The notes under the pieces were generated by a model. The model worked only from the letters and a program-made list of their open reading frames with translations, ran no database searches and was not told the origin of the DNA. DNA of 64,000 bases from Oscillospiraceae bacterium. GTDB taxonomy: Bacteria; Bacillota; Clostridia; Oscillospirales; Oscillospiraceae. Below are positions 46,681 through 62,636 of this stretch, one piece after another; the first letter of the stretch is position 1, and each line of letters starts with the position of its first letter. The stretch lies in NCBI GenBank assembly GCA_015067845.1, contig SVLT01000004.1:62001-126000 (forward strand), in the 5' to 3' direction. The translations under genes were made by a program, and so were the position numbers.

Positions 46681-47721
46681 TTAGTCGGCGTCGTCCGGGT
46701 TGACCGGCTCTCTGGAGTTGGGAGAATTCATGCCTTCGTAGGGTGCCTTGTAGTCCACGGGGAATGGGTCAGCAGACCAGTCCACGCTCCAGGGCTTTTC
46801 CGTACGGAAGGGATTGACGAACTTGTTTTTCAGCAGGCCGCGCTTTTCCAGGCTGATCATGCAGGCCCGGGTACAGCCGGCGGAGCCGCCAACAGCCTGT
46901 CCGGTGTTGTACAAATTCTGGGGCTTTTTATTGAAGGGGGTGTTGAAGGCATTGGTGTAGCCATCCACATGGTCGAAATACTTGTCGTTTTCGCCCTCCT
47001 CCACAGGTCTTGCGCCACGGAACGCGACGGCGCATTTCTGCATGTCCACATCCGCCCATTCCAGCTCGTAGCCGCCAACATTAGCCTTGACGGTACGGTC
47101 CTTGGGGATACAGCCGCCGGGGCATTCCCGGACGCAAGCCATACAGCGGTTGCACAGAGTGCCGGGCTCCATAATAGGATCGGGCTCCAGCTCCATATCG
47201 GTGATGATAACGCCCACACGGACACGGGGGCCGAATTCCGGTGTCAGCAGCATCTTGGAATAACCGATCTCGCCCAGACCGCAGAGGAAACCGGCAATAC
47301 GCAGATTGAGCATCACATCGGGAGCCGCCTTGCCGGGCGCGACGGGACGGGACCAGTCCTTGCGCATGTAACCGTAGTTGTCGATGCCGCGCCAGTCGCT
47401 CTGGTGACCCATGGGAACGGCCTCATAGCCTGCATCCTCGATCATTTTGCTCAGATTGATGACTGTCATGGGCATGTACAAATAGGTGATGCCGCCGTAG
47501 CCCATAGCGGAATAGTTGGAAAAATAGGTACCTTCTTCAATGCCCCGCAGAGAGCCGCGGAACACACGGAAACCCATACAGATGATGGATTTTGCATTGG
47601 GCATAATTTGCTTGGGGTCCATCTGGATGGGAGCTGTGCTCCAACGGTCGATGGAACCGATGCCCACAATATCCGCGCCCAGCCGTTTGGCGGCAGCTTT
47701 GATATCTTGTGAAGTGATCAT
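46681..47721 (-). CDS. 4Fe-4S protein, QueG/reductive-dehalogenase-like
   Basis: The 346-residue protein shares the QueG/RdhA core: MITSQDIKAAAKRLGADIVG, GITYLYMPMT, DVMLNLRIAGFLCGLGEIGYS, then a ferredoxin cluster Cys190, Cys193, Cys196, Cys200 with CPGGC. A second cysteine pair follows (GCTRAC). No signal peptide is seen, so it is cytosolic. QueG reduces epoxyqueuosine using cobalamin; these shorter relatives of unknown function are common in anaerobes. AAGGAGGAACATT precedes the ATG at 47721; the earlier start at 47739 lacks a site. It is the first gene of the U32-AraC operon. Confidence 0.78.
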   Translation of the reverse strand: MITSQDIKAAAKRLGADIVGIGSIDRWSTAPIQMDPKQIMPNAKSIICMGFRVFRGSLRGIEEGTYFSNYSAMGYGGITYLYMPMTVINLSKMIEDAGYEAVPMGHQSDWRGIDNYGYMRKDWSRPVAPGKAAPDVMLNLRIAGFLCGLGEIGYSKMLLTPEFGPRVRVGVIITDMELEPDPIMEPGTLCNRCMACVRECPGGCIPKDRTVKANVGGYELEWADVDMQKCAVAFRGARPVEEGENDKYFDHVDGYTNAFNTPFNKKPQNLYNTGQAVGGSAGCTRACMISLEKRGLLKNKFVNPFRTEKPWSVDWSADPFPVDYKAPYEGMNSPNSREPVNPDDAD

Positions 47722-47764
47722 AATGTTCCTCCTTGACAAATTTGCTTCCTGAAAAGCTGATTTT

Positions 47765-48995: not shown

Positions 48996-49811
48996 TTATG
49001 CCTGCTGTTTCCACAGTTGCAGAGCATCCCGAATGACCCAGTTGCTCTTTTCCAGCAAATCCACACAGGCCATCTCGTCATAGCCTGTGATTTGACTGAC
49101 AATGCGGATGACTCTGCCGCGGAGTTTGATATTGGTTGGCTTTAAATTAATCATCAAGTTCTCATACACATAGCCGCTGCGCACCATAGCACCGGTGGAG
49201 AGCATATTCAAGATCATTTTTTGGGCATTGCCCGCTTTCAACCGGGTGGATCCGGTGAGTACCTCAGCACCTGTGTCCACAGCAATGGAAATATCGCTGA
49301 TGGTATCCAGCTTACTGCCCGGGTTGGATGTGATGCCGATGGTAGTGCAGCCCAGAGACTGGGCGTATTTCAGTGCGTTGCATACAAACGCTGCACCGCC
49401 GGCAGCAGAAATTCCCACCACCACATCCAGTGCGGTCAGTTCTCGCTGTTTCAGTTCCCGAACGCCGTCATTAGGATCGTCCTCGGCGTTTTCACTGGCG
49501 TGGATCATAGCGTCCAGCCCGCCGGCAATGATGCCGACCACCTGTTCCCGGGGCACGCCAAAGGTGGGCGGGCACTCTGCGGAGTCCACCACGGCCAGCC
49601 GTCCGGATGTCCCCGCACCCATGTAAAATAGCCGCCCGCCCTGGGAAAAGGCCTCGGCGATTGCATCAATGGCCCGGGCGATTTGGGGAAGCGCCGGGGT
49701 CAGACAGGCCACGCTGTACGCATTTTCTTCATTCATCACCTGAACGATCTCCAAAGAGGTCATTTTGTCCAGATGTGTGGTTTTCGGATTGCGCTGTTCT
49801 GTTGTGAGCAT
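48996..49811 (-). CDS. murQ: N-acetylmuramic acid 6-phosphate etherase
   Basis: MurQ cleaves the lactyl ether of MurNAc-6-P, giving GlcNAc-6-P and D-lactate, in peptidoglycan recycling. The 271-residue product starts TEQRNPKTTHLDKMTSLEIV and holds the SIS-domain motif GRLFYMGAGTSGRLAVVDS with AECPPTFG, which includes the catalytic Glu. It is slightly shorter than typical MurQ (about 300), lacking part of the C-terminal helix bundle. Its ATG overlaps the stop of the kinase fusion (TAATG), so the two are translationally coupled. Confidence 0.95.
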   Translation of the reverse strand: MLTTEQRNPKTTHLDKMTSLEIVQVMNEENAYSVACLTPALPQIARAIDAIAEAFSQGGRLFYMGAGTSGRLAVVDSAECPPTFGVPREQVVGIIAGGLDAMIHASENAEDDPNDGVRELKQRELTALDVVVGISAAGGAAFVCNALKYAQSLGCTTIGITSNPGSKLDTISDISIAVDTGAEVLTGSTRLKAGNAQKMILNMLSTGAMVRSGYVYENLMINLKPTNIKLRGRVIRIVSQITGYDEMACVDLLEKSNWVIRDALQLWKQQA

Positions 49812-50956
49812 TATACTTCCTCCTGATATGTTTCCATGAAAAGTTCAAAATTGGGGGCAGGTAAATGGATCATCCGTGCACACTGCAAGCATGCACCCCA
49901 GACAGCAGGCTTGGAGACCATCTGCGGGCAAAGCCCGGGCTTCAGCATCTCTGCCAGCTTTGTGCGGAAAGGTTCGCATTTCGTCAGCAGACTGCCGCCA
50001 AGCAGCACCTGTTTGGCCTTCGGCGCTCTGTCTGCCGCTGTATTGATCAGATGGGCAAGACGCTGGATACTGGCCGTTACGATTTCCGTTGCAACAGGAT
50101 CTTGCTGCTGCCATGCACGGATCACCAGCGGCGCAAAGGAGGCGATGAAGGATGGATCTTCCCGATAGATCTGCTGGATATTGTCCCAGACCCTTCCCCC
50201 CAGCTTCTGCTCCACCGATTCTGTCAAAGTGGTAGCGGGTCCTGTGCCATCCCGATGCTCCAATGCCGCCAGCAAAGCCTGCCGGCCCAAATCGTAGCCA
50301 CTTCCCGCCTGCTCCAACCGCCAACCACCGCCGCCGAATCGGTGAAGCTTTCCATCTTTGGTGGCAAAGACCACATTGCCGGTGCCGCAAATCACGGCAA
50401 TGGCATTGTCCGGGGTATCCGCGTGGGCGAGAACATTATAGATATCCGTCATGCAGCGCAGGCGCAAATTGGGATACCAATCCCGCAGGATCGCTTCCAC
50501 AGAAACTGCGTTGTTGGATGATATCATGCCCGCGCCGCCAATAAACAAGCCCATCACCTGACATTCGCATTGCATGAGCGAATCGATGCCCCGACGAAAC
50601 AGATCGCAGGTCTGCTGTATTCCGCAGGTGTTGGGGTTCGCGCCGCCGAGCACCAGACGCTTGATCAGTCTGCCGCTATGGGAAATGAGGACAAACTCCG
50701 TTTTTGTGCCCCCGGCATCCACGGCAATGAGTGCAGGCTCCGCCGATGGGGTTACCCCCAACAAGGAATCTGTGGACACTTGCAGGATCTGTGCCAATTT
50801 ACAAAGGCAAAGCAGGTCGGGCATAGAAGCTCCCTGTTCCCATTTTGACACCGCCTGTGTGGAAAGAAAAAGCTGTTCTGCCAGCTGACGCTGGGAAAGG
50901 CCTTTTCTTTTTCGCGCCATTCGTAAATTCGTGGCAAATACAGAAGAATCAAACAT
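49811..50956 (-). CDS. XRE HTH-BadF/BadG kinase fusion, probable GlcNAc/MurNAc kinase-regulator
   Basis: The 381-residue protein begins with an XRE HTH (residues 8-62, LSQRQLAEQLFLSTQAVSKW) and continues as an ASKHA-fold kinase of the BadF/BadG/N-acetylglucosamine kinase type, with DAGGTKTEF (80-88), a FIGGAGM strand, ICGTGNVVF and a GSLL segment. The kinase would phosphorylate GlcNAc or MurNAc, feeding MurQ, whose gene overlaps its end. The DNA-binding domain could repress the operon in response to substrate, much like ROK repressors. Palindromes upstream fit autoregulation. Domain calls are firm; substrate and regulation are inference. Confidence 0.85.
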   Translation of the reverse strand: MFDSSVFATNLRMARKRKGLSQRQLAEQLFLSTQAVSKWEQGASMPDLLCLCKLAQILQVSTDSLLGVTPSAEPALIAVDAGGTKTEFVLISHSGRLIKRLVLGGANPNTCGIQQTCDLFRRGIDSLMQCECQVMGLFIGGAGMISSNNAVSVEAILRDWYPNLRLRCMTDIYNVLAHADTPDNAIAVICGTGNVVFATKDGKLHRFGGGGWRLEQAGSGYDLGRQALLAALEHRDGTGPATTLTESVEQKLGGRVWDNIQQIYREDPSFIASFAPLVIRAWQQQDPVATEIVTASIQRLAHLINTAADRAPKAKQVLLGGSLLTKCEPFRTKLAEMLKPGLCPQMVSKPAVWGACLQCARMIHLPAPNFELFMETYQEEV

Positions 50957-51077: not shown

Positions 51078-51108
51078 AAAACCAGTCGAGAAAACTCTCG
51101 ACTGGTTT
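51078..51108. terminator. Terminator of the Opp/DUF3899 operon
   Basis: AAACCAGTCGAGA and TCTCGACTGGTTT pair around AAAC, 13 bp. A TTTTTTTATTTC tract follows on the minus strand. Confidence 0.9.
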
Positions 51109-51120
51109 GCATGGATGCTT

Positions 51121-51549
51121 TTATGCATTATAAAATGCCTGGTTCCAAATAACTGTGAACACAACTCCGATGATAAGGAATACAAGTCCTGTCACAAGAA
51201 TAGGTCTGTTGTTATTCTTTTTTGCGTTGGCCAGCTTACGCGCCCGGTAGTCGGCATATTTTTCGTGCTTTGCTCTGCCCATGGGGATAAAGGTGAGCAC
51301 CACATTTCTCAGCACAAAACCGATACCAATGAGTGCGCCTTCGCTGCTGATATACATCATGCCCGCAAAAAGGGTCATCAAGATACCGGAGACGAAGAAT
51401 GCGTCAGCCAAGATCTGGATATTCACCGCCAGGCTGTGTGCGAAAAAGCCCTTTGACCAGATCACAAGGAACGCGATCAGAGCCTCAATGCCAACACAAA
51501 TCCCATAATTTCTCAATGCTGTCTTGGTTTCCTGATTCACTGCTTTCAA
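51121..51549 (-). CDS. DUF3899-type membrane protein
   Basis: The 142-residue protein has four predicted membrane helices (about residues 15-33, 40-68, 72-92 and 117-135) and a basic loop HEKYADYRARKLANAKKNNN. It resembles DUF3899. It lies nine bases after the Opp ATPase and is the last gene of that operon, so it may be an accessory of the peptide importer. Function is unknown. Confidence 0.7.
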   Translation of the reverse strand: MKAVNQETKTALRNYGICVGIEALIAFLVIWSKGFFAHSLAVNIQILADAFFVSGILMTLFAGMMYISSEGALIGIGFVLRNVVLTFIPMGRAKHEKYADYRARKLANAKKNNNRPILVTGLVFLIIGVVFTVIWNQAFYNA

Positions 51550-51557
51550 CCACCCTG

Positions 51558-52817
51558 TTACTTGAGCTGCTGCTTGTACTTTTCAAATTCCGCGTCGTTA
51601 CACTGCACGAAATGGCCGGGGGCGATCTCACGGAAGGAGGGCGCATCCACGGAATAATCGTGCTCCGCAATGGGATTGTAGTGAATTCTCACACGCTGCT
51701 TCTCATACACGGGGTCGGGCAGCGGAATTGCAGACAGCAAAGACTTGGTGTAGGGGTGCAGAGGATTCTTAAACAGCTCGTCGGAATCCGCCAGCTCCAC
51801 CATCTTGCCGAAGTACATAACGCCGATGCGGTCAGAGAAGTACTTAACCACCGACAGGTCGTGGGCGATGAACATAATGGTAAGTCCCAGACGCTCCCGC
51901 AGGTCGTTAAGCAGGTTGATCACCTGTGCCTGAATGGAAACGTCCAGAGCAGAGATGGGTTCGTCGGCAATGATCATCTCGGGCTGCATGATAACGGCTC
52001 TTGCAATGCCGATACGCTGACGCTGACCGCCGGAGAATTCGTGGGGGTAGCGGTCTGCATGCTCACGCACAAGGCCCACCATTTCCAGAATCTCGTAGAC
52101 CTTCTCGTTGATATACTTCTTGTCGGTGATGCCGTTGATCACCAGACCCTCAGCGATAATATCACGAACGGTCATACGGGGGTCAAGAGACGCGATGGGA
52201 TCCTGGAAGATCATCTGGATTTGCGTAATGAGTTTGCTCTTTTTTGCCACACGGCAGCGATTTTGGTATTCCTTTTTCAGCTTTTTCAGCAACTCGTCGT
52301 CGCCTTCCGCCATCTGGAATTTCCGGGCGTACTCTTCTTCCAGGGCTTTGAGCAGGGTCTGGACATAATGCTTGTCAACTTCCTTGCTGTCGGATCTTGC
52401 ATCCTTGATCAGAGCCCGGTTTTTGTCCACAACGGCGCCAAGCTCCGCGTTGATCTTCTTGATCTCCTCCTGGATCTCGGCCTTTCTTACATCGTCCACA
52501 TCCTTTTCGGCGCGGAGAGCCTTGATCTTTTTGGCAGCATCCTTACGGGCGGCAGAGATGGCGTCCTTGTAGGCGCGGGTGCCTGCGCCGATGCGCTGGC
52601 CCTTGAAGTACACATTGCCGGAGGTGATATCGTACAGCTTGATGATGGAACGGCCGGTGGTGGTCTTACCGCAGCCGGACTCGCCCACGAGACCGAAGGA
52701 TTCGCCTCTTTTGATCTCGAAGCTGACATCGTCAACCGCTTTCAGGTCCTTGCGGCCCAGGCGGAAATACTGGCAGAGGTGTTCTACTTTCAACAATACT
52801 TCGTTATTATTCGCCAT
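51558..52817 (-). CDS. oppF: Oligopeptide ABC ATPase (OppF-like) with ~105-residue charged helical insertion
   Basis: The 419-residue ATPase has Walker A GESGCGKTT (45-53), Q-loop FQDP (204-207), signature FSGGQRQR, Walker B MIIADEP and switch THD-type AHDLSVV. The C-terminal Opp motif HPYTKSLLSAIPLPDP is present. Walker A and Q-loop are about 159 residues apart instead of 50-55. The extra segment (about 78-195) is Lys/Glu/Ala-rich and probably coiled coil (KAEIQEEIKKINAELGAVV). The ATG at 52817 has GAGGTGG; a GTG three codons earlier is less likely. It overlaps the end of the OppD-like gene. Confidence 0.92.
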   Translation of the reverse strand: MANNNEVLLKVEHLCQYFRLGRKDLKAVDDVSFEIKRGESFGLVGESGCGKTTTGRSIIKLYDITSGNVYFKGQRIGAGTRAYKDAISAARKDAAKKIKALRAEKDVDDVRKAEIQEEIKKINAELGAVVDKNRALIKDARSDSKEVDKHYVQTLLKALEEEYARKFQMAEGDDELLKKLKKEYQNRCRVAKKSKLITQIQMIFQDPIASLDPRMTVRDIIAEGLVINGITDKKYINEKVYEILEMVGLVREHADRYPHEFSGGQRQRIGIARAVIMQPEMIIADEPISALDVSIQAQVINLLNDLRERLGLTIMFIAHDLSVVKYFSDRIGVMYFGKMVELADSDELFKNPLHPYTKSLLSAIPLPDPVYEKQRVRIHYNPIAEHDYSVDAPSFREIAPGHFVQCNDAEFEKYKQQLK

Positions 52818-55038
52818 TGTTGCCACCTCTTTCTTTCATTCTCCGGATACGCTCGGTGATGATCTTGGGAATTTCCACCTTAGGTGCGTTGGGATGGAGC
52901 AGCCAGGTTGCTGCAAAGTGGGTGGGAGAAACCTCGTACATGGGAGGCTCCATCTCGAAATCGATCTCCATTGCGTACTTATTTCTCTCCGCGAAGGCAT
53001 CGCCAACGGGGGGATAGATCATATTCGGAGGTGTACCGGGGATCGCATCCAGCTTTTCGTTGGTATCCAGGTCAGGCATGGAGGACAGCAGGGCCCAGGT
53101 ATAGGGATGCTGAGGGTTGTAGAACACCTCTTCCGCCGTGCCGTATTCCACAATTTTGCCGGCATACATAACGGCAATTCTGTCCGCCATGTTGGCAACC
53201 ACACCCAGGTCGTGGGTGATGAAGATAATGGACAGATTGTGCTCCCGTTTCAGCTTGTTGATCAGCTCCAGGATCTGCGCCTGAATAGTAACGTCCAGGG
53301 CGGTGGTGGGCTCGTCACAGATGAGGATATCGGGGTTAGCAGACAGGGCAATTGCAATAACAATACGCTGACGCATACCGCCGGAGAACTCAAAGGGATA
53401 CTGTCTGTAACGCATTCTGGCCTCGGGGATACCCACCTCTTCCATGAGCTTGATGGCCTTTTCCTTGGCGATCTGCTTGGTCAGGGTGTAAACCACCTGA
53501 GAAGCCTTTTCTTTCAGATAATCGATGAGATCCACACAGCGCTTATCTGCATCAAAGCTCTCCGCGGCGGCAACATCGGCCTTGAACTTGTTCATGACAC
53601 GGAGGAGAACAGAAACGATGGTCTCGATCTGCACCTCGGGCTCAATAACCGACTTCGGAATGACCTTCCAGTCCACCTTCTTGCCCCGGGCGAGGAGTGC
53701 CTCTCTCTGGGCGGTCTGGCGGGCAAAACGGGCCTCTTCCTTGGGATTGTTCTTGATATAGAAGAAATACTTCTCCACTTCTCTGTGCAAAGCGCCGCCG
53801 AAGGTGTAGGCCACGCTGTCCTTGACGATGGCAAGGGGATCAATGGCAGCCAGAACGCTCTTGTTCACATGCTTGTAGGTCTCCTCCGCTGCCTGGGCGG
53901 AGAAATCCCCTGCCTCGAAGAAGGAAATAGCATTTTCCAGGTCTGCAATGGCAGCCTTTTTGTTTTCGATGGACTGGTCATAGGAATACTGCACCGCAAT
54001 CTTGACCAGAACCATGAAGTCGTCCATGAAGTCCTCCATGAGGAACTTGATGGTCATCTCGTTGGCCTCTTCCGCGGACATCTGGCTCAGGTCGGTCTGG
54101 GGGTGCTTGTACACATAGTAACCGATTCTGAAGAAGTTGTACTGAGGACGGTCCAGCATCTCACGGGCCGTTTCTTCCAGCGCTTTCAGCACCTGGACGG
54201 TCTCAGCAGAAGCCTCGTTCTTGGATGCGGTTGCCGCAACCAGCTTCTTGGCCATATCAATAACGGTTACCTTTTTCTTCTCTGCACGAAGGACACCGTC
54301 GTACGCCTCAGCATGGGCTTTCAGCGCATCCTCGTAATGGGAAATGAAGTACTTGTCGTTGATCTCCTTCAGCTTGCGGCCGATGAGGCCCAGCATGGAC
54401 ACCACATCCACCTTCTGCCTGTTCTCAGTAAGGAACAGCAGATCCTCGATGGTGGCGATCATTTCCTCCGCGGCAGTACGGGCGGCGTTGTAGCTGTTTT
54501 CCAGCTTGATGGCCTGAATGTTGAAGTCATCAAAGGTTTTGATGAACTTATCCACATCCGCAGGGGAGACATTGGCATCGGGCTTCTCAGCCAGGGCCTT
54601 TTTGATGGTCTCGGACAGCTGGGCAAGGGTCTTGTTAAAGGTCTCACGACCCTCCTTGCGGTTTGCCTTGTTTTTCAGCAGCATGGCCTCGGTGATCTGC
54701 TTACCGATACGCATAATGGGGTTCAAAGAAGACAGGGGGTCCTGGAAGATCATTGCGATCTTGTCGCCCCGGAGCTTGTGCATCTCCTCCTCGGGGATAC
54801 GCACCAGATCCTGGCCGTCATAAAGGATCTCGCCGCCCTCGTAAATGGAGTTGCCGGCAGAAATGCCCATGATTGCCTTGGAGGTAACGGACTTGCCGGA
54901 ACCGGATTCGCCCACGATGGCCAGGGTCTCGCCCTTATAAAGATCGAAGGAGATATTGCGAACTGCCTGCACCTTGCCGGCATCTGTACGGAAGGAGATT
55001 TTCAGATTATTTACTGATAATTTAATTTCTTTATTCAT
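52807..55038 (-). CDS. oppD: Oligopeptide ABC ATPase (OppD-like) with ~385-residue insertion
   Basis: This 743-residue protein is more than twice the usual OppD length. It has Walker A GESGSGKSV (43-51), Q-loop FQDPLSSLNP (98-107), signature FSGGMRQR (551-558), Walker B ILICDEPTTAL and the C-terminal HPYTWALLSSMPDL motif. Between Q-loop and signature about 385 extra residues (roughly 125-510) intervene, helical and charged (ENRQKVDVVSMLGLIG, DADKRCVDLIDYLKEK). The insertion sits where the ATPase helical domain contacts the permease. Flanking sequence around it is normal Opp, so the frame is intact. It pairs with the OppF-like ATPase. Confidence 0.92.
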   Translation of the reverse strand: MNKEIKLSVNNLKISFRTDAGKVQAVRNISFDLYKGETLAIVGESGSGKSVTSKAIMGISAGNSIYEGGEILYDGQDLVRIPEEEMHKLRGDKIAMIFQDPLSSLNPIMRIGKQITEAMLLKNKANRKEGRETFNKTLAQLSETIKKALAEKPDANVSPADVDKFIKTFDDFNIQAIKLENSYNAARTAAEEMIATIEDLLFLTENRQKVDVVSMLGLIGRKLKEINDKYFISHYEDALKAHAEAYDGVLRAEKKKVTVIDMAKKLVAATASKNEASAETVQVLKALEETAREMLDRPQYNFFRIGYYVYKHPQTDLSQMSAEEANEMTIKFLMEDFMDDFMVLVKIAVQYSYDQSIENKKAAIADLENAISFFEAGDFSAQAAEETYKHVNKSVLAAIDPLAIVKDSVAYTFGGALHREVEKYFFYIKNNPKEEARFARQTAQREALLARGKKVDWKVIPKSVIEPEVQIETIVSVLLRVMNKFKADVAAAESFDADKRCVDLIDYLKEKASQVVYTLTKQIAKEKAIKLMEEVGIPEARMRYRQYPFEFSGGMRQRIVIAIALSANPDILICDEPTTALDVTIQAQILELINKLKREHNLSIIFITHDLGVVANMADRIAVMYAGKIVEYGTAEEVFYNPQHPYTWALLSSMPDLDTNEKLDAIPGTPPNMIYPPVGDAFAERNKYAMEIDFEMEPPMYEVSPTHFAATWLLHPNAPKVEIPKIITERIRRMKERGGNNGE

Positions 55039-55040
55039 CC

Positions 55041-56621
55041 TTAATCCTCCGTTCCTCTCAGCGACGGATTAAACGCATCGCGCAGACCGTTGCCGAACAA
55101 ATTGAAGCTGAGCATCAAAAGAACCAAGAACAGACAGGGGAAGAGTGCCACGTGGCCGGCATTTGCCACGATGGACTGCTGTCCTGCTGCGATCAAAGTA
55201 CCGACAGAGGTGGTATTGCCAGCTTCCAGATTAATGATGCCCAGATAGGAGAGGCTTGTCTCCGAGTAGATCATAGCAGGAATGACCAGGGCAACGCTGG
55301 TTACGATGGTGCCCAGACCGTTGGGGAAAATATGCTTGAACATAATTCTCAGGTCCCGTGCGCCCAGGGTTCTTGCCGCCAGAACGTATTCCTGGTTCTT
55401 GAAGCGGTAGAACTGCATACGGGTAGTGTGCGCCATGCCAATCCATCCTGTCGCAAAGAACGCTATGAATAGGACGAGAGCCTGGCTTGTGGCACCCATG
55501 TGATACTTCAAAAGGGTAATGACGATGATGGTAGGTACGGCGCCCAAAATTTCGGCAAATCTTTCCATAGCCAGATCGATCTTGCCGCCGTAATAACCGG
55601 AAATGGAGCCCCAGATAACACCGAAAATGAAGTTCGCCAGGGCAACGACTGTGGCAAAAATGAAGGAGAATCTTGCGCCGTAAGCGAGGCAGGCGAAGAC
55701 GTCCTTACCGGTTTGGGTGGTACCGAACCAGAACACAGGCTCTCCGATGCCGTCCTTCTTGACCTGTGTATGCTGATAGGTATAGTATTCGTAGTATTCG
55801 GCTCGGACTTCAACACCGCCGTCAACCTTACGGCCGTAGGCGTAGAAGTACTGCTTGCCCTTCTCTGTAATGCCGTCCTCGCCCTCGATTCTGAGGGAGT
55901 TGTACTCCGGAATCAGACCATTGTCCTCACCGGCCTCATATTTCCAGTAATTCGGAACGATTTCACCCTTGCTGTTCAGCTTGGGACGGATCGCGGAAGC
56001 ATTAGGATTTTCCATCTTATAGTAGATGTTTGCGTCGTACTTGTTCTTTTCCAGCTTGGGTCTGTCAGCAAACTTGACAACGGGATACAGCACCTGTCTG
56101 CCGGTTTCATTCTGGTATCTCTGAATATCCTTGAACTCTTCCGCAGAGATGATCTTATACTTACCGAAGCCCACACCGTAATAGGTGTCGTAACGGTAGG
56201 AATAAACAGAACCGTCTTCGCTTACTTCATACTCGCCGTTTTTGATGACATCTCTGCCGGTTTCCGTAGCGATCGCGAGGTCTTTGAGGTAACCGATATA
56301 GCTTGTTTCCTTCTGCTTGCAGCCGTCCCAGAAATCAATGCCGCTTTCGGCAAACAGAGGATTCTTGGGGCTTGCATATGCGTATACCATATCGTAATAC
56401 GCGGGCTGGAAGGGGGTGAAGAAGGGGGCAATGATCGCAAAAAGCACCAGTATGGCAATCACCACAGCAGCCACGACAGCGCCCTTGTTCTTGGAAAAAC
56501 GCTTGAACGCACCCTGAAAATAGCTTACGGGCTTGGTTTCAAATTTGCTGTCATGATACAAATCATTTCTCTTGGTGAATTGAAACTTCTCTATGGGAAT
56601 GTTATTGAAATTATTATTCAT
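55041..56621 (-). CDS. oppC: Oligopeptide ABC permease (OppC-like) with large external segment
   Basis: The 526-residue permease has the normal OppC six-helix domain: TM1 at about 46-67, then from residue 307 the rest, with ARFSFIFATVVALANFIFG and the EAA-type loop EYVLAARTLGARDLRIMFKH. The stretch between TM1 and TM2 (about residues 72-306) is far longer than the usual 50-60 residues and would lie outside the membrane. It is rich in Tyr and charged residues (YYGVGFGKYKIISAEEFKDI). It could contact the oversized binding protein. It starts two bases after oppB and is part of one operon. Confidence 0.92.
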   Translation of the reverse strand: MNNNFNNIPIEKFQFTKRNDLYHDSKFETKPVSYFQGAFKRFSKNKGAVVAAVVIAILVLFAIIAPFFTPFQPAYYDMVYAYASPKNPLFAESGIDFWDGCKQKETSYIGYLKDLAIATETGRDVIKNGEYEVSEDGSVYSYRYDTYYGVGFGKYKIISAEEFKDIQRYQNETGRQVLYPVVKFADRPKLEKNKYDANIYYKMENPNASAIRPKLNSKGEIVPNYWKYEAGEDNGLIPEYNSLRIEGEDGITEKGKQYFYAYGRKVDGGVEVRAEYYEYYTYQHTQVKKDGIGEPVFWFGTTQTGKDVFACLAYGARFSFIFATVVALANFIFGVIWGSISGYYGGKIDLAMERFAEILGAVPTIIVITLLKYHMGATSQALVLFIAFFATGWIGMAHTTRMQFYRFKNQEYVLAARTLGARDLRIMFKHIFPNGLGTIVTSVALVIPAMIYSETSLSYLGIINLEAGNTTSVGTLIAAGQQSIVANAGHVALFPCLFLVLLMLSFNLFGNGLRDAFNPSLRGTED

Positions 56622-56623
56622 AC

Positions 56624-57631
56624 TTATTTCGCTCCCATTCTAATTCTCGGGTCAATGAAGCCGTAACTGATATCGATCACGATACCTGCTGTCAGACTTA
56701 TCAGGGTGTAGAAGCCGGACAACAGCATAAAGAAGTCATAATCCTGGAAGGTGATGGTGTTGAGGTAGAGACCGCCCACACCGTTGACGGCGAACATTCT
56801 CTCAATGATCAGCGAGCCGGAAAGCACGGAGATAAACTCACTAAGAATGGAGGGGAAAATGACTACCATGGAGTTACGCATGGCATGACGATAGATGGCC
56901 TGTCTCTTGGTAAGGCCCTTGGTTCTGGCCAAAAGCATAAACTCGCCTGTGAGCACTTCGGACAGCTCGGCACGGGTGTAACGGGCATAGCCCGCAATGG
57001 AGCCCAGACACAGGGCAAAGACCGCCGGCAGCATGGAATGGAACACTTCCCAGGTGAAGTAATCGTCGCTCGTGGACATGATCAGTGGGAACCATCTCAG
57101 CTTAAAGCAGAACACATATTGGATCATCAAAGCCAATACGATGGAGGGAACCGAAATCAACAAAATAATGAAAATATTGATTACCTGGTCCTGCCATTTA
57201 TTCTTTTTCAGCGCAGCCAAAATACCCAGACCGAGGCCGATGGGCACGCCGATCAGGGTGGAATAAATGTTGATCAGGATCGTGGGGGGCAGATGGCTGA
57301 CAAAAACCTCCCAGATATTCATGTTGAGATATTCACCGTAGGTGGTAACAATACCGAAGTCGCCCTCAGTCACGATTCTCTTGATATAGGTTCCGAACTG
57401 TTGCAGGATCGGCACCCGGTCATATTCCCAGACGCCGTTGCTGCCCTCTCGGATATTGGTGATCCAGCCTCTGCCTTCCAGAGTTTTCATAACAATGACA
57501 GGGTCCTGTCCCGGAAGCACATTGGTCGGAATGGGCAGAAGCTTGATCAGCACAAAGCACATCGTAAAAATGATAAAGAATGTGAACAGCATCAAGCCCA
57601 AGCGCTTCGACACATATTTAAACATATACAT
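56624..57631 (-). CDS. oppB: Oligopeptide ABC permease (OppB-like)
   Basis: The 335-residue permease has six helices, the N-terminal KYVSKRLGLMLFTFFIIF helix, an external loop (about residues 30-105), and the EAA-type loop YTRAELSEVLTGEFMLLARTK. It has a near-normal length, unlike its partners. It forms the translocation pore with OppC. The start could also be at 57625. A 330-base gap with a hairpin separates it from the binding-protein gene. Confidence 0.93.
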   Translation of the reverse strand: MYMFKYVSKRLGLMLFTFFIIFTMCFVLIKLLPIPTNVLPGQDPVIVMKTLEGRGWITNIREGSNGVWEYDRVPILQQFGTYIKRIVTEGDFGIVTTYGEYLNMNIWEVFVSHLPPTILINIYSTLIGVPIGLGLGILAALKKNKWQDQVINIFIILLISVPSIVLALMIQYVFCFKLRWFPLIMSTSDDYFTWEVFHSMLPAVFALCLGSIAGYARYTRAELSEVLTGEFMLLARTKGLTKRQAIYRHAMRNSMVVIFPSILSEFISVLSGSLIIERMFAVNGVGGLYLNTITFQDYDFFMLLSGFYTLISLTAGIVIDISYGFIDPRIRMGAK

Positions 57632-57961
57632 AGGTATTACTCCTCTGTTTGATTGTTTTCCAATTCACAGTGTGAGCCAAAAAGCAGTTAATTGAGTGGC
57701 TCTGCGCGCACAAAGGCGGCGCGCCGCCAAAAATGACGATACATACCGTCTTATTTTGTCAATAAATAGCTTCTTTTAGCTATTATAAAACCCCATGCGC
57801 GGGATTATTCATCTTAGCAGAAGTCGAATTCTTTGCTTTTTTGCAATTTGTGGATTCACTAATTTCGCTTTTCGGGTGTCATAAAAATGGCAAACTAGCG
57901 GTGAGCACAGTGGCTCACCGCCGTTTGCGTTAGTTTAGTTCAGTCGTTCAGAACTCCGAAA
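57632..57961 (-). promoter_or_regulatory. Opp intergenic leader with processing/attenuation hairpin
   Basis: The region between the binding-protein and oppB genes contains one long stem-loop (57891-57927), AGCGGTGAGC paired with GCTCACCGC around ACAGTG, just after the binding-protein stop. The rest is AT-rich and shows no gene. Such stems commonly lower expression of permeases relative to the binding protein. No strong promoter is visible in it. Confidence 0.6.
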
Positions 57962-60574
57962 TTACTCGGACTTCTTGTACTCGGAGGACAGGTCGCCGTT
58001 GTTCTGAGAAACGAAGGTTTCCCACTCAGCATCGGTGTAGTTGACCTCGATGTATCTCAGACCGCCGAAGCCCATGAAGGTGTGCTCGTCTTCGGAGAAG
58101 TAGGAGAACTTAGCACCCAGGAAGGAACCGCCGCCGTTAGCGATCAGCATAACGGAACGGGACTCCTTGATAACCAGCTCTTCCAAAGCGGACAGAATGG
58201 TCAAACGAGCTTCCATAGGAGCCTTGCCTTCGTCCCAGTTGTAGGTCTTATCCGCGCCCTCGGACTCAGCCAGACCGTTCAGGCAGAAGAACCAGTTCTG
58301 CACATCCATGGTGATGGTCTCACCAGCGCCCTCGTAATCACCGGCGGGCATGGTCAGGGTCATGTCGATATTGGTGGTATCCCAGTACATGTGGTAGTTC
58401 AGATCATCGTCGGGATCGACGAATGCGCCCACCATGTCAAAGGGATCGAAAGCGGCACCGGAGAAGCCGTAGCCGAAGCCGATCTGCGTAGCGCCGGAGC
58501 GGAAAGCATCAGACCACTTGGAGCCTGCGGATGCGTCGAAGACAACCTTGATCTTGCCTTCCAGAGCAGTGCCCTCGGTCAGGCCGTCCAGGATGCCCTG
58601 CAGGTATTCTGCACGGAATCTCTGCTTGTCGGTGTCCACGGAAGCACCGTAAACCAGAGTGATGTCCTTGGAAGCATCGTAGCCGTACTTCTCGGGATCA
58701 GCAGTCAGGATAGCAATAGCTTCCTTCATCTTTTCCTTAGCCAGAGTGGGGTTGTAGCCGGTCAGAGCGTCGTAAGCGTCGTCAGTGGACAGATCCTTCA
58801 GATCGCCGCTGGACCACTTGCCGTCAGCATTCTGAGTGAAGCCGTAAGCGCGCAGGATGCCTTCCTTGGCGATGGTGCTGTTACGGTACTGACCGCCGTC
58901 TTCCAGGTCGGGAGAGTTTTCGATGTCGTAGTAGTAAGCAACGTTAACCAGGCCGAAGCAGGGAACTGCGGTGCCGGGCCAGATCTTCTCAACGATGTCA
59001 CTTCTGTTCAGACCCAGGTTGAAAGCGTGACGGAACTCCTGGATAGCCAGGATACCGTTGTTGTTGTCGCTGGCCTTCAGGGTGTCCAGGTCGGAGTACA
59101 GCTGCATACCGAAGGTACCGGTGTCGTTGGAGGTGAAGTAAACGTACTTGGAGTCCAGATAGTCGGCAACATTGAAGTCCTGCAGAGCAGAATCGTCGTA
59201 GTCACCGGCCAGGAAGCCCTGCCACTGGGTGTTGGGATCTTCGACCTTACGGCAGTTGATGGCGGTGATGTTGTACTGGTTCTTGTACTGATCCAGATTC
59301 CATCCATACCAGTTTTCATTCTTCGCCAGCTTGTAGTGAGAGCCGGCCTCGAACTCAACGAGCTTGTAGGGGCCCCAGGAAGCGGTAGTAGCCAGAGAAG
59401 AGTTGTACTTGGAGGTCCACAGTGTTGCACCCTCAGCGGGTTCGATTCTGGCAGCATCGTACTTTTCCTTGTGTGCCAGAGGCAGGCTGGAGAAGTAGTA
59501 GGGAGCCCAAACGGACAGGCTGCCGTCTTCCTTCAGGAATTCGTAAGACTTATCCAGGCACAGAACGATGGCGTTCTCGCTTTCAATAGTATAGAAACCA
59601 ACGGTATCCCATGCCACTTCGTCGCCGTAACCGGAGACATAGAACAGAGCTTCCATGAACAGCTCTTGCTGGGTAGCCTCGTCCATGCTGCTCCAGTCGA
59701 GGCCGAAGGGCTGCAGAGCATAGGCCAGCAGCTCTTTGGCTGCATCCATGTTGTCCTCAGTGATCAGGGTGTAGCCATATTCATTGGCTGCATCTGCGAT
59801 GACCTTCAGGGCAGCAATAGCCTCTGCAGAGCCAACATAATTAGTGATAAGGTCGGTCAGAGAATAGCCGGCCAGAGTCATACCGGTGCTATTGACACCC
59901 ATATAGACCTCGGCACCTTCCAGATTGAAGGAGTAGTCGGGTGTTTCATCGCTGCCATAAGCAGGAACGATGGGGGTATAGATGGGAGCGCCGGAGAAGA
60001 AGTACTCCTTGGAGTTCTTGATCATCAGGGTATCATAGTAAGTATTTGCGCGGAAGTTCATGAACTTGGGATCCAGCAGCTGCTGCATGGACCACTCGAA
60101 GTCAGCAGCGGTGATGGCAGTGCCATCGTCCCATTTCAGGTCGTCACGCAGGGTGATCTTCCAAGCGTAGCCACCTTCGGCCTTCTGGTCGTCGGTGTAG
60201 CCCCACTTTGCATCAACAGCGGAAGTAACGTCTTCCAGCTTGGTGGCTGCGGAGTAGTTGGTGGTGTAAGCACCGGGAACGATACCGGCCTTGTTGATGG
60301 AGCCATCATCATTAAACTTCTTGTCGCCTTCGAACTTGTAGTCATATTCGAAGAAAGAAGATGTAATGTAGCTCATGATCTGGGTGTCATTGTTGTCAGC
60401 ATAGGTAAATTCGTTCCAGTTGCTGGGCATGACACTGGTGGTGGTGTTGTACTCAGCCTGCTTCAGGGAAACCTGAGCGATGGGAGTGTCGGTGGGAGCG
60501 CAGCCTGCGAACAGAGCAGCAACCATCACCAGGCACAGAGCCATGGCCAGTACGGACTTAAAAGTCTTGTTCAT
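57962..60574 (-). CDS. oppA: Oligopeptide-binding lipoprotein (family 5), unusually long
   Basis: The 870-residue lipoprotein has lipobox LFAGC and a family 5 peptide-binding fold: WKITLRDDLKWDDGTAITAADFEWSM (partly quoted), PYKLVEFEAGSHYKL, KNEN, LNLGLNRSDIVEKIW and a C-terminal ETITMDVQNWFF. Family 5 proteins are normally about 540-600 residues, so roughly 280 residues are extra, spread between the lobes. It captures peptides for the OppBCDF complex. The ATG at 60574 follows GAGGAGGAAAACATT; longer frames lack an RBS. It has its own consensus promoter. Confidence 0.9.
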   Translation of the reverse strand: MNKTFKSVLAMALCLVMVAALFAGCAPTDTPIAQVSLKQAEYNTTTSVMPSNWNEFTYADNNDTQIMSYITSSFFEYDYKFEGDKKFNDDGSINKAGIVPGAYTTNYSAATKLEDVTSAVDAKWGYTDDQKAEGGYAWKITLRDDLKWDDGTAITAADFEWSMQQLLDPKFMNFRANTYYDTLMIKNSKEYFFSGAPIYTPIVPAYGSDETPDYSFNLEGAEVYMGVNSTGMTLAGYSLTDLITNYVGSAEAIAALKVIADAANEYGYTLITEDNMDAAKELLAYALQPFGLDWSSMDEATQQELFMEALFYVSGYGDEVAWDTVGFYTIESENAIVLCLDKSYEFLKEDGSLSVWAPYYFSSLPLAHKEKYDAARIEPAEGATLWTSKYNSSLATTASWGPYKLVEFEAGSHYKLAKNENWYGWNLDQYKNQYNITAINCRKVEDPNTQWQGFLAGDYDDSALQDFNVADYLDSKYVYFTSNDTGTFGMQLYSDLDTLKASDNNNGILAIQEFRHAFNLGLNRSDIVEKIWPGTAVPCFGLVNVAYYYDIENSPDLEDGGQYRNSTIAKEGILRAYGFTQNADGKWSSGDLKDLSTDDAYDALTGYNPTLAKEKMKEAIAILTADPEKYGYDASKDITLVYGASVDTDKQRFRAEYLQGILDGLTEGTALEGKIKVVFDASAGSKWSDAFRSGATQIGFGYGFSGAAFDPFDMVGAFVDPDDDLNYHMYWDTTNIDMTLTMPAGDYEGAGETITMDVQNWFFCLNGLAESEGADKTYNWDEGKAPMEARLTILSALEELVIKESRSVMLIANGGGSFLGAKFSYFSEDEHTFMGFGGLRYIEVNYTDAEWETFVSQNNGDLSSEYKKSE

Positions 60575-60663: not shown

Positions 60664-60692
60664 ATTATATTACGATTGGGCCTCTATGTCAA
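60664..60692 (-). promoter_or_regulatory. Promoter of the Opp operon
   Basis: On the minus strand TTGACA (60692-60687) and TATAAT (60669-60664) are 17 bases apart, a consensus sigma-A promoter. Confidence 0.85.
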
Positions 60693-60890: not shown

Positions 60891-60920
60891 GTATAGGGGC
60901 CGGAAAACCCGGCCCCTACA
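60891..60920. terminator. Stem-loop after the GH20 gene (GTAGGGGC-type)
   Basis: TATAGGGGCCGG and CCGGCCCCTACA pair around AAAACC. It stands just after the GH20 stop on the minus strand and could end that transcript. It has no strong U-tract, so a repeat origin is equally likely. Confidence 0.5.
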
Positions 60921-60935
60921 ATATCAAATGTAAAA

Positions 60936-62636
60936 TCAAATATCCTCGCAGTATTCGAACATTTCCAGAATTCTGTAAAGCTCGTTGGGCTGATTTTTCT
61001 GCATCCACTTTTCGGAGTATTTTTTCAGCCACTGCCGGGTGTCGGTCAGTCTGCTCACCGGACGGCCCAGCAGCTTTTCCCACAGTTCCGCGATCACGCA
61101 CACGCCCTCCGCCGCCAGAATCATCTCCTGCCGGTATTCGTCGCGGAGCCATTGCTCGGCGGACAGCTTTTTGACCAATTCCGTATATCCCTTTTGCACC
61201 GCGGCCACATTCAGCCGAACCTCTCGCTGATCGCTTATGTAATCGTAGCGGTGATAAAAATAGGCTCTGCAAAAATCATTCCAATTGACATGCTCATGAA
61301 GCGCGCTCAGTTCCTTCAAATACTTCATGCCGTTTTCGTTTTCATACAGCAGCGCGTTCACCCGGCTGTAAAATGCCTCATCCACGGGCGTAGCCACCGA
61401 CCAGGACATTTCCGCGCCCAGCACCAGGCCGTACATAGCCAGCTCCAGACTGCAGGGGTTGCCCCAGTCGCCCCAGTTGGTGTTCAGAACGCCCAGGGCG
61501 CCGTGCTGATGGCCGTAACGGGCCATGCGGCAGATGTTCGGCTCCTCCACGGCCACATTTTCGCACAGTCTGCTCCAAGTCGTTGTACCGGGACAGACGA
61601 TCTGCTTTCTTCCGGACTGGGCAAAGCGGGTGATCTTTTCCTCCGGAGGCGCCGCGCTGTAATCCCAGTTCAGGAAACAGATGTCCTCAGGGATCTCTCC
61701 GATGGTCTGGGGGTACTTCAACAGGATATCCGCCCACATCATGACCTTTTTACCGTGCTTTTGCGTATGGGCGATGATCTTTTTCACAAAATCCACATAG
61801 AGCTTTCCGGAATCCACACCCAGAGCATCGTAGCTGTGCAGATCAAAGGTCTCGTCGCAGCAGATGTTGAACCATTCGCTTTCAAAACAGGGCACATACT
61901 GATCAATGAGGCTGCCCACCAGGGCGATGCTCTCAGGCTGTTCCGGATCCAGGGTGTGGTGCACCATTCTGTTGCGCCACAGATTCGGCTCTGCTTCATA
62001 ATTCTTCAATACCCGTAAATGCCGGTATTGGGGTTGCTCCAACAGTTCGTACAGATGGCCGAAGGTGGACAACGACGGAACAAAATCAATGAAGTTTTCC
62101 CGGCAGTACGCGCCGATCTCCAAAAGGTCTTCCTTTGTAAGGTAACCGGTGCTGTCCCTTAGCTGCTTGTACTCCTCAAATTCAAAGGTATGCTCCACAT
62201 ACAGCTGCAAGGAATTGAGCTTGTAGTAAGCCATCTGATCGATCAGCTTTTTGATTCTTTCCACGGTGGGGATCTTGCCCCGGGTCACATCGTGGTAAAA
62301 TCCTCTGTAGGGAAAATCCGGCTCGTCCTCAATAGACAGGCAGGGAATTTCCTTATGAGTAAACAGCTGTCTCAGGGTTTGTATTGCATAAAACGCGCCT
62401 GCCGGGCCGGCAGCTTCGATAGAGATCCGGTTTTCCTCCACCAAAAGGGTGTACGCTTCTCCCTCATCGCCGTTGATGCGGATATCCAACGGAGCGCCGG
62501 ACGGGTCACAGGGAAGCTTTTCAAGGGCAGACAGCAGCCGGGCATCCAGACCGCTTTTCTCGCAGCAAACAGCTTTTGCCGCAAAAAAATTGCTGTGGAT
62601 TTCCAGGTTCTTTACAGCAGGTATCAGGTTTATCAC
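60936..62636 (-). CDS. Glycoside hydrolase family 20 beta-hexosaminidase, cytosolic
   Basis: The 566-residue protein has a GH20b-like N-terminal domain (about residues 1-105, with AGPAGAFYAIQTLRQLF) and a TIM barrel. The barrel contains RGFYHDVTRGKIPTVERIK, DFVPSLSTFGHLYELLE and the catalytic pair in WFNICCDETF (Asp261, Glu262). GH20 enzymes remove terminal GlcNAc or GalNAc. No signal peptide is present, so a cytosolic enzyme acting on imported oligosaccharides is likely. It is divergent from an AraC regulator that probably controls it. Confidence 0.86.
   Translation of the reverse strand: MINLIPAVKNLEIHSNFFAAKAVCCEKSGLDARLLSALEKLPCDPSGAPLDIRINGDEGEAYTLLVEENRISIEAAGPAGAFYAIQTLRQLFTHKEIPCLSIEDEPDFPYRGFYHDVTRGKIPTVERIKKLIDQMAYYKLNSLQLYVEHTFEFEEYKQLRDSTGYLTKEDLLEIGAYCRENFIDFVPSLSTFGHLYELLEQPQYRHLRVLKNYEAEPNLWRNRMVHHTLDPEQPESIALVGSLIDQYVPCFESEWFNICCDETFDLHSYDALGVDSGKLYVDFVKKIIAHTQKHGKKVMMWADILLKYPQTIGEIPEDICFLNWDYSAAPPEEKITRFAQSGRKQIVCPGTTTWSRLCENVAVEEPNICRMARYGHQHGALGVLNTNWGDWGNPCSLELAMYGLVLGAEMSWSVATPVDEAFYSRVNALLYENENGMKYLKELSALHEHVNWNDFCRAYFYHRYDYISDQREVRLNVAAVQKGYTELVKKLSAEQWLRDEYRQEMILAAEGVCVIAELWEKLLGRPVSRLTDTRQWLKKYSEKWMQKNQPNELYRILEMFEYCEDI

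What the first reader, a model, noticed from the sequence alone, without database searches (positions are those of the whole stretch)
51121..60574. Oversized oligopeptide ABC transporter operon
In one operon the binding protein (870 residues), OppC (526), OppD-like ATPase (743) and OppF-like ATPase (419) are each much larger than the usual 540-600, about 300, about 330 and about 320, while OppB is near normal. All motor motifs remain intact. Enlargement of four interacting subunits at once suggests co-evolved extra domains, for instance for large or unusual peptides, gating, or linking to another complex. I did not find a described system of this form in what I know, but I cannot search.
Basis: partly seen in the sequence, partly recalled or inferred. 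Interest (0 to 1): 0.85.

Follow-up and report, generated by a model that had tools for sequence, protein, structure and literature searches.

The report
Peptide importer with added docking arms
A bacterium with many relatives from animal guts carries a peptide importer with two large extra parts that are inherited together: one predicted to sit outside the cell on the channel, where it would likely dock the peptide-catching protein, and one predicted to be an all-helical arm on the motor; relatives of the outer part also exist on their own as predicted surface proteins.

Summary
The operon (51121-60574, minus strand) encodes OppA 870, OppB 335, OppC 526, OppD 743, OppF 422 and a DUF3899 membrane protein, with ATPase motifs intact. 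The excess lies in defined inserts: about 214 residues in OppC between TM1 and TM2; about 399 all-helical residues in OppD between Q-loop and signature; about 115 charged residues in OppF between Walker A and Q-loop. OppA is large, but so is an unrelated OppA of the same genome.

In 295 genomes of the order, 36 hold an OppC or OppD insert and 32 hold both; of four discordant, three are cut contigs and one has a shorter, divergent OppD insert. Outside that sample, L047 has the OppC insert without ATPase inserts. Inserts are under purifying selection. Distance correlations tie the OppC insert to OppA and OppB, and the OppD insert to OppF, but not to each other. The OppC domain also occurs as lipobox-bearing stand-alone proteins, which branch beside the OppC domains of the window's kin.

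I read it as an Opp3/Ami-like importer reinforced on both faces: an outer docking domain and an inner brace (both inferred). New variant of a known kind.

The parts
57962..60574 (-). OppA, peptide-binding lipoprotein, 870 aa
   Evidence: PF00496 94.6 bits; lipobox-like start in the sequence
56624..57631 (-). OppB permease, 335 aa, near-normal size
   Evidence: PF00528; six hydrophobic segments
55041..56621 (-). OppC permease, 526 aa
   Evidence: PF12911 + PF00528; 85% identical to L027 and 40-47% to seven further clade members
55734..56375 (-). OppC insert, residues 83-296, in the TM1-TM2 loop; predicted extracytoplasmic alpha/beta domain
   Evidence: boundaries against E. coli OppC 8z21_B; block pLDDT 85-95 in residues 81-300; dN/dS 0.085-0.158; stand-alone homologues with lipobox
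52807..55038 (-). OppD ATPase, 743 aa
   Evidence: PF00005, PF08352
53482..54678 (-). OppD insert, residues 121-519, between Q-loop and ABC signature; predicted all-helical arm
   Evidence: boundaries; helices without any strand of three or more residues, block pLDDT 62-97; dN/dS 0.07-0.20; no Pfam or NCBIfam family over its cut-off
51558..52826 (-). OppF ATPase, 422 aa
   Evidence: PF00005, PF08352
52242..52589 (-). OppF insert, residues 80-194, between Walker A and Q-loop; 44% charged, length varies among relatives
51121..51549 (-). DUF3899 membrane protein, conserved last gene of the operon
   Evidence: PF13038 41.5 bits over cut-off 23.4; directly after OppF in 66 of 72 operons with complete OppF, by a model built from members of the same set
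60664..60692 (-). promoter-like TTGACA-17-TATAAT upstream of oppA
   Evidence: 12 of 12 consensus match; not proof of function
57898..57921 (.). 9-bp stem-loop in the oppA-oppB gap, possible read-through attenuator (inferred)
51079..51108 (-). terminator-like hairpin after the DUF3899 gene
   Evidence: 13 pairs, T-rich tail
60892..60920 (-). terminator-like hairpin after the upstream GH20 gene, so that oppA appears to start its own unit

Best explanation
The operon encodes an Opp3/Ami-like ABC peptide importer with conserved added domains on both faces: a roughly 214-residue OppC domain that is predicted to stand outside the membrane and likely docks and aligns OppA, and a roughly 399-residue OppD arm that is predicted to be all-helical and would likely brace the OppF side of the motor. 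Shown here: the position of the inserts, their restriction to one clade, their joint inheritance, purifying selection, the lack of the C-terminal iron-sulfur cysteines in both ATPases, and the existence of the OppC domain as stand-alone proteins with a lipoprotein signal. Inferred: in the related Ami system the OppC-side TM1-TM2 segment was modelled against lobe 2 of the binding protein and a large OppB-side domain was modelled as a clamp (PMC11192437); here the OppC-side segment has become the large domain. The OppD arm leaves the helical subdomain, which rotates by about 20 degrees in the Dpp cycle (PMC12136057), so it would move with each ATP cycle and could hold the two ATPases together where no iron-sulfur clusters do so. 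Untested: any contact, any effect on transport, and the substrate.
For: Order survey: both inserts in 32 genomes, and the four discordant ones explained. Tree: all inserted operons examined plus L047 form one clade at 100/100 with L036, which has no ATPase insert, as sister (40 operons; same clade in 97 operons). Inserts dN/dS 0.05-0.19, 0.07-0.20 and 0.085-0.158 against eight close relatives. Confident models for both inserts. Partial distance correlations over 68 operons: OppA with OppC insert 0.25, OppB with OppC insert 0.39, OppD insert with OppF core 0.41, each reached by 0 of 500 permutations; OppC insert with OppD insert -0.01 (287 of 500), OppA with OppD insert 0.03 (150 of 500), OppB with OppD insert 0.05 (75 of 500). 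The OppC domain recurs in 36 proteins of 222-272 aa with a lipobox among 120 hits, which supports its place outside the membrane; in L083 such a gene lies about 1 kb downstream of the DUF3899 gene. Iron-sulfur cysteines: the OppD tail has none in 77 of 78 inserted operons, against 5-7 in five ordinary Opp operons of the order.
Against: Relatives without ATPase inserts also lack the iron-sulfur cysteines (L036, L037, L041, L045, L046, L048, L051; OppD of four named relatives and OppF of the three scored), so the arm is not required to replace the clusters. L047 has the OppC insert without either ATPase insert, and L118 lacks the OppF insert. The system is patchy: 36 of 295 genomes of the order. 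Distance correlations are weak evidence: rows are not independent, the permutations are not probabilities, and the OppC insert shows no partial link to its own core (-0.04, 389 of 500). dS is 0.7-3.2 in the dN/dS comparisons, so partly saturated. The OppD model is poor in the ATPase core (blocks down to 34), so the direction of the arm is unknown. No complex was modelled. Structure searches matched only the known cores, so the insert folds are unassigned.
Confidence: 0.45

Rival explanations
1. The inserts tether the importer to other proteins, such as DUF3899, cytosolic peptidases or other surface proteins, rather than to its own subunits; this is the first reader's 'linking to another complex'.
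For: DUF3899 follows OppF in 66 of 72 operons. A subclade of eight loci has OppF with an N-terminal extension whose hydrophobic segments lie about 320-350 residues apart. The OppC domain also occurs as free predicted lipoproteins.
Against: DUF3899 also follows an ordinary Opp in Bacillus badius and OppF of L036, which has no ATPase insert, so it does not track the inserts. No other neighbour family (ORFs of 120 aa or more) is found in more than 14 of 81 loci. The OppD insert co-varies with OppF without any outside partner.
Confidence: 0.25
2. The enlargement serves large or unusual peptides such as muropeptides, as the flanking genes hint.
For: MurQ (TIGR00274 330.6 bits over cut-off 302), a kinase with its best NCBIfam match to an N-acetylglucosamine kinase (89.1 bits, cut-off 370) and a GH20 protein flank the operon.
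Against: None of the three is found in any of 88 related loci, which hold 0-7.4 kb upstream and 0-5.5 kb downstream of the operon. Terminator-like hairpins separate them from the operon. Inserts in ATPases would not select substrates.
Confidence: 0.12
3. The inserts are tolerated elongation without a specific role, fixed by drift in one lineage.
For: The OppD insert has about six times the mean distance of the OppD core (1.45 against 0.24), the OppC insert about 2.7 times that of the OppC core (1.31 against 0.48). OppF insert length varies from 0 to about 125. L047 and L118 lack some inserts.
Against: dN/dS 0.05-0.20, nearly invariant residues inside the inserts, confident folds, and both inserts present in seven family codes of the order.
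Confidence: 0.13

Closest known systems
Opp3 / Ami oligopeptide importers (Streptococcus AmiACDEF; Opp3-like operons of Ilyobacter, Bacillus badius, Pediococcus)
   Same: Gene set and order, and the OppC_N and oligo_HPY domains that define the wider Opp family. No four-cysteine iron-sulfur tail in OppD of the four named relatives, nor in OppF of the three scored. DUF3899 beside the operon in Bacillus badius. Ami also has an enlarged extracellular permease part (AmiC 498 aa against AmiD 308; PMC11192437, passages).
   Different: In Ami the large domain is on the OppB side (AmiC 31-278); here OppB is near normal and OppC carries it. The named relatives have no ATPase inserts. NCBIfam Opp3B and Opp3C cut-offs are not reached.
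Mollicute Opp (NCBIfam MMSYN1_0167 OppD 561, MMSYN1_0168 OppF 649; Mycoplasma synoviae OppF 797 aa, PMC5797395, passages)
   Same: Enlarged ATPases. The match of OppF to its model breaks after model position 70, where the window's OppF insert begins. These models score best for OppD and OppF.
   Different: The match of OppD to its model breaks at position 71, between Walker A and Q-loop, not after the Q-loop; the window's OppD insert has no NCBIfam match. Scores are far below the equivalog cut-offs.
E. coli DppBCDF/OppBCDF and M. tuberculosis OppABCD
   Same: Core folds.
   Different: Four cluster cysteines are present in each E. coli Dpp ATPase and needed for assembly (PMC12136057, passages); absent here. 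No insert of this kind in the matched chains.
MalF with its periplasmic P2 region (maltose importer)
   Same: A large extracytoplasmic domain on one permease subunit; MalF-P2 interacts with its binding protein (cited titles and one passage seen in PMC3150292).
   Different: Different loop (recalled); no fold match of the insert was obtained. An analogy only.

Membership tests
Opp/Dpp-type peptide ABC importer | SBP_bac_5 binding protein, OppC_N/BPD_transp_1 permeases, ABC_tran + oligo_HPY ATPases in one operon | tested here: met
   these families all over their Pfam cut-offs
Opp/Dpp-type peptide ABC importer | Intact ATPase motifs in both subunits | tested here: met
   sequence
Opp/Dpp-type peptide ABC importer | Transports peptides | not testable with these tools
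   no assay possible
Opp3 equivalogs of NCBIfam (Opp3B, Opp3C) | Curated cut-offs 480 and 450 bits | tested here: not met
   203.9 and 259.0 bits; so not filed as Opp3, only as an Opp3/Ami-like relative
Opp3/Ami branch | No four-cysteine iron-sulfur tail in OppD and OppF, as in the named relatives (a trait observed here, not a published definition) | tested here: met
   OppF of Lactobacillus crispatus was not scored
Mollicute OppD/OppF (MMSYN1_0167/0168) | Equivalog cut-offs 740 and 800 bits | tested here: not met
   472.9 and 411.1 bits
Mollicute OppD/OppF (MMSYN1_0167/0168) | Insert site | tested here: inconclusive
   OppF break at the same place, OppD break elsewhere; Mollicute sequences themselves were not fetched
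SMC/Rad50-like ATPases | SMC_N domain | tested here: not met
   24.6 bits against cut-off 40; only the placement of a helical insert inside the ABC domain is reminiscent (recalled)
MalF-P2-like docking domain | Fold of the extracytoplasmic domain | tested here: inconclusive
   searches were filled by the permease core; the insert could not be folded and searched alone

The most novel reading that the evidence does not exclude
A transporter whose docking domain has been copied out of the permease and released as a family of surface lipoproteins. The OppC domain is the importer's OppA-docking platform; its lipid-anchored copies compete for or pre-load OppA and so regulate uptake in trans, while the helical OppD arm couples that outer event to the ATPase pair. 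This would be a two-faced control architecture not described for ABC importers.
Probability: 0.15. Interest if true: 0.8.

Novelty: new variant of a known kind. Interest (0 to 1): 0.55.

Why it matters
Peptide importers feed gut bacteria and also take up signal peptides and some antibiotics (general knowledge). This clade shows that their permease and motor can gain large domains that are kept together, at sites where solved relatives have about ten residues or fewer, and that a permease domain has a free-standing predicted lipoprotein family beside it. It gives a natural series (L036 without ATPase inserts, L047 with the OppC insert only, L118 without the OppF insert, and full members) in which the role of each domain can be tested one by one. 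Public records start OppD at an internal methionine in all six contigs compared, which may help to explain why the form has been overlooked.

Tried and rejected
Assembly artefact or mis-called starts: rejected, since the insert recurs in 72 of 72 complete OppD of the OppB-based set and is under purifying selection.

OppA enlargement as part of the package: weakened, because another operon of the same genome has an 855-aa OppA.

Inserts as replacement for iron-sulfur clusters: not required, because relatives without ATPase inserts lack the cysteines too.

Muropeptide operon: neighbours MurQ, kinase and GH20 found in 0 of 88 related loci with limited flanks.

Homology to the Mollicute OppD insert: no match of the isolated OppD insert to any NCBIfam model at E up to 1. 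Pfam matches of the isolated inserts at E up to 1 were all under the curated cut-offs, the best DAK2 at 0.004.

OppD insert as a stand-alone protein: of 183 hits, 120 were listed; the four of these without a Pfam domain lie on contigs of 1.0-1.4 kb and look like fragments. No match of this insert in the plasmid collection.

Stand-alone lipoproteins in a class sample of 391 genomes: the long matches lie in OppC-size frames (G000, G072, G727), and the many weak ones match mostly the signal-peptide end, so none was placed. No lipoprotein gene was seen in the window's genome.

Structure searches: Foldseek and VIA-align matched permease and ATPase cores; known folds for the inserts are neither found nor excluded.

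L047 as basal intermediate or secondary loss: not resolved (long branch, AU p 0.20).

Rows dropped: 5 of 102 operons fell out of the trees because a motif pattern failed (L058, L133, L142, L146, L147); one search used 40 of the remaining 97; one search used 68 operons with complete A, B, C, D and F.

Literature: searches for OppD/OppF with insertion and Mycoplasma, with Walker A and Mycoplasma, Christensenell* with OppD, OppC with extracellular domain, OppD with 'large insertion', and DUF3899 gave 3, 0, 0, 0, 0 and 0 papers in the held library. This covers open PubMed Central texts only; of all papers cited I saw listings, abstract starts and passages, none in full.
Full report
OBSERVATION. 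The operon on the minus strand at 51121-60574 encodes OppA (870 aa), OppB (335), OppC (526), OppD (743), OppF (422 from GTG, 419 from the next ATG) and a DUF3899 protein (142). It looks like one transcription unit: a perfect TTGACA-17-TATAAT lies at 60692-60664, a terminator-like hairpin follows the upstream GH20 gene at 60920-60892, and another follows the DUF3899 gene at 51108-51079. These are consensus matches only; a further stem-loop lies in the oppA-oppB gap. The flanking MurQ, kinase and GH20 genes thus appear to be separate units, and none is found in 88 related loci, which hold 0-7.4 kb upstream and 0-5.5 kb downstream.

ANATOMY. OppD residues 7-120 and 520-711 align with M. tuberculosis OppD 5-117 and 124-317, so about 399 residues stand where that protein has six, between the Q-loop and the signature. 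Q-loop to signature is 454 residues here and 60 in ordinary OppD. OppC residues 83-296 stand where E. coli OppC has about ten residues, between TM1 and TM2. OppF residues 80-194 sit between Walker A and the Q-loop (159 against about 50). None of the inserts has a hydrophobic segment of membrane type. AlphaFold2 with 62 and 66 sequences gives confident inserts. In OppD, residues 111-516 hold helices up to 55 residues long and no strand of three or more (block pLDDT 62-97 in the insert), but the ATPase core of the same model is poor in places (blocks down to 34; mean 77.4), so the direction of the arm is not known. The OppC insert is a mixed alpha/beta domain with block pLDDT 85-95 (mean of the model 82.9). 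Location outside (OppC) and inside (OppD, OppF) follows from the known topology of OppC and ABC ATPases and is inferred.

HOW WIDESPREAD. All 72 complete OppD have the insert; 76 of 77 OppC away from contig ends are at least 500 aa and one is split; 66 of 68 OppA away from contig ends are 780 aa or longer, and two are shorter. In 295 genomes of the window's order, the OppC insert model hits 35 and the OppD insert model 33, 32 of them shared, in seven family codes. Of the four discordant genomes, three have contigs that end within the operon (L143, L144, L145) and one (G257 = L142) has a shorter, diverged OppD insert (272 residues between Q-loop and signature) that the model missed. The hits lay in frames of OppC or OppD size, apart from shorter frames of G255 near contig ends. 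The distribution is patchy, also within the window's own genus code. A phylum-wide sample of 398 genomes gave only the window's own genome for the OppD insert; a class sample with the lipoprotein model also hit OppC-size frames in other families, clearly in G727 and partially in G925. Some loci are labelled Mollicutes, Anaeroplasmataceae, Erysipelotrichaceae or Spirochaetes by their depositors; I did not verify these labels. The placement of the order as Christensenellales is recalled from the names Gallimonas and Scatosoma, which NCBI lists as Clostridia incertae sedis.

EVOLUTION. In trees of B, C, D and F cores with the inserts left out, all inserted operons examined plus L047 form one clade (100/100, 40 operons; also with 97 operons). 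L036, which has no ATPase insert and only a short OppC loop extension, is its sister. L047 has the OppC insert but ordinary ATPases; its long branch falls inside the clade, but a tree that holds all OppD-insert operons together without it is not rejected (AU p 0.20). L118 lacks the OppF insert. Among 78 inserted operons Walker A to Q-loop in OppF is 50 in one and 94-174 in 77. Seven other operons (L038-L044) form a different lineage: OppB is 523-532 aa in all seven, six have an OppD insert at the Walker A-Q-loop site, and OppC is normal. Enlargement of Opp subunits is therefore recurrent, but the specific OppC and OppD inserts were seen only in this clade.

SELECTION AND CO-VARIATION. Against eight close relatives dN/dS is 0.07-0.20 in the OppD insert, 0.085-0.158 in the OppC insert and 0.05-0.19 in the OppF insert, against 0.014-0.025, 0.058-0.101 and 0.027-0.056 in the rest of each protein. 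dS is 0.7-3.2, so partly saturated. The inserts are protein under constraint, less than the cores. Over 68 operons, partial correlations of pairwise distances, with the other cores as controls, are 0.25 for OppA with the OppC insert, 0.39 for OppB with the OppC insert and 0.41 for the OppD insert with the OppF core (each reached by 0 of 500 permutations). They are near zero for OppC insert with OppD insert (287 of 500), OppA with OppD insert (150 of 500), OppB with OppD insert (75 of 500), and OppC insert with its own core (389 of 500). This fits two separate partnerships, outside and inside, rather than four subunits changing as one. The method does not model the tree and is weak evidence.

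STAND-ALONE RELATIVES OF THE OPPC DOMAIN. A profile search of 5.8 billion proteins with the OppC insert gave 120 hits. A script sorted 36 of them as lipoproteins of 222-272 aa with an N-terminal hydrophobic stretch and a lipobox, 51 as OppC N-terminal pieces, 20 as OppC C-terminal pieces and 13 as other; one of the 13, P0178, also carries a lipobox behind a longer start. In the 26 that I aligned, the lipobox cysteine is invariant, and the OppC-insert model matches from residue 35-64 to 204-258, E 4e-47 to 5e-37. In a tree of 83 rows (quick method, midpoint root) the 27 lipoproteins group together (98) beside 16 OppC inserts of the window's near kin, the two joined at 100. Because those kin are nested deep in the operon tree, the likelier direction is that the domain left OppC within this lineage; the tree itself does not show direction. 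In L083 the lipoprotein gene lies downstream of oppF and DUF3899, on the same strand, with one predicted gene between. It was not seen in the window's genome.

IRON-SULFUR CLUSTERS. In E. coli DppD and DppF four cysteines each hold a [4Fe-4S] cluster needed for assembly (PMC12136057, passages read). In 78 inserted operons the OppD tail has no cysteine in 77 and one in 1; the OppF tail has one in 71, two in 5 and none in 2. Ordinary Opp operons of the order have 5-7 in OppD (five scored) and 4-5 in OppF (five scored); the window genome's second operon has 5 and 4. L036, L037, L041, L045, L046, L048 and L051, without ATPase inserts, and the named relatives also lack the four-cysteine tails, so the loss most likely came before the inserts.

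MECHANISM. The closest description in print that I saw is the pneumococcal Ami importer. AlphaFold models put two domains of AmiC (OppB side) as a wedge and platform on the binding protein, and the TM1-TM2 coil of AmiD (OppC side, residues 64-99) against its lobe 2 (PMC11192437, passages read). Here that OppC-side coil has grown to a domain of about 214 residues, so an OppA-docking role is the simplest reading. The OppD arm leaves the helical subdomain, which rotates about 20 degrees in the Dpp cycle (PMC12136057), and its distances track those of OppF. I infer a brace or lever between the two ATPases. Neither contact is shown.

NOVELTY. Enlarged permeases (Ami) and enlarged ATPases (Mollicutes; Mycoplasma synoviae OppF 797 aa in PMC5797395, passages) are known. 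The combination, the insert sites and the lipoprotein relatives were not found in the held papers with the searches. NCBI-sourced proteins start at an internal methionine at residues 327-342 of OppD in all six contigs compared, out of 14 NCBI-sourced hits of 399-407 aa, so automatic annotation can hide the form. I rate it a new variant of a known kind.

Noticed in passing
L109, L112, L113, L115, L117, L119, L120, L131: A subclade has OppF of 807-844 aa with an N-terminal extension whose hydrophobic segments lie about 320-350 residues apart before the ATPase, so OppF may be membrane-anchored with an outside segment. No Pfam domain was found in the extension of the one member scanned, L120.
   Followed up: partly
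L038-L044: A separate Opp lineage with enlarged OppB (523-532 aa); six of seven have an OppD insert between Walker A and Q-loop and OppF of 431-445 aa, with a hydrophobic tail in the three checked.
   Followed up: partly
L083 17611-18366; P0155-P0205: Stand-alone predicted lipoproteins made of the OppC insert domain; in L083 downstream of the Opp operon behind a gene that looks like an aldose epimerase (name recalled).
   Followed up: partly
P0312, P0318, P0320, P0322, P0334, P0337 against L084, L091, L072, L074, L076, L067: Public records begin OppD at an internal methionine at residues 327-342, inside the insert, in six of six compared.
   Followed up: yes
window 48996-50956 and 60936-62636: MurQ, an N-acetylglucosamine-kinase-like protein with a helix-turn-helix domain, and a GH20 protein flank the operon; not found in 88 related loci.
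   Followed up: yes
window 34339-41499: A 2386-aa protein with eight FctA (Spy0128-like isopeptide) stretches and a weak von Willebrand A match, a likely surface protein.
   Followed up: no
window 46681-47739: Weak match to the reductive dehalogenase family (56.9 bits, cut-off 160.35).
   Followed up: no
L006 (G000:C30): A second Opp operon of the same genome with OppA 855 aa, smaller B, C, D and F, and iron-sulfur cysteines retained, beside large proteins with leucine-rich-like repeats (repeat type recalled).
   Followed up: partly
L097 OppC; L086 OppD: Further growth: OppC of 837 aa in L097 and an OppD ORF of 935 aa in L086 with a long lysine, threonine and alanine-rich tail.
   Followed up: no
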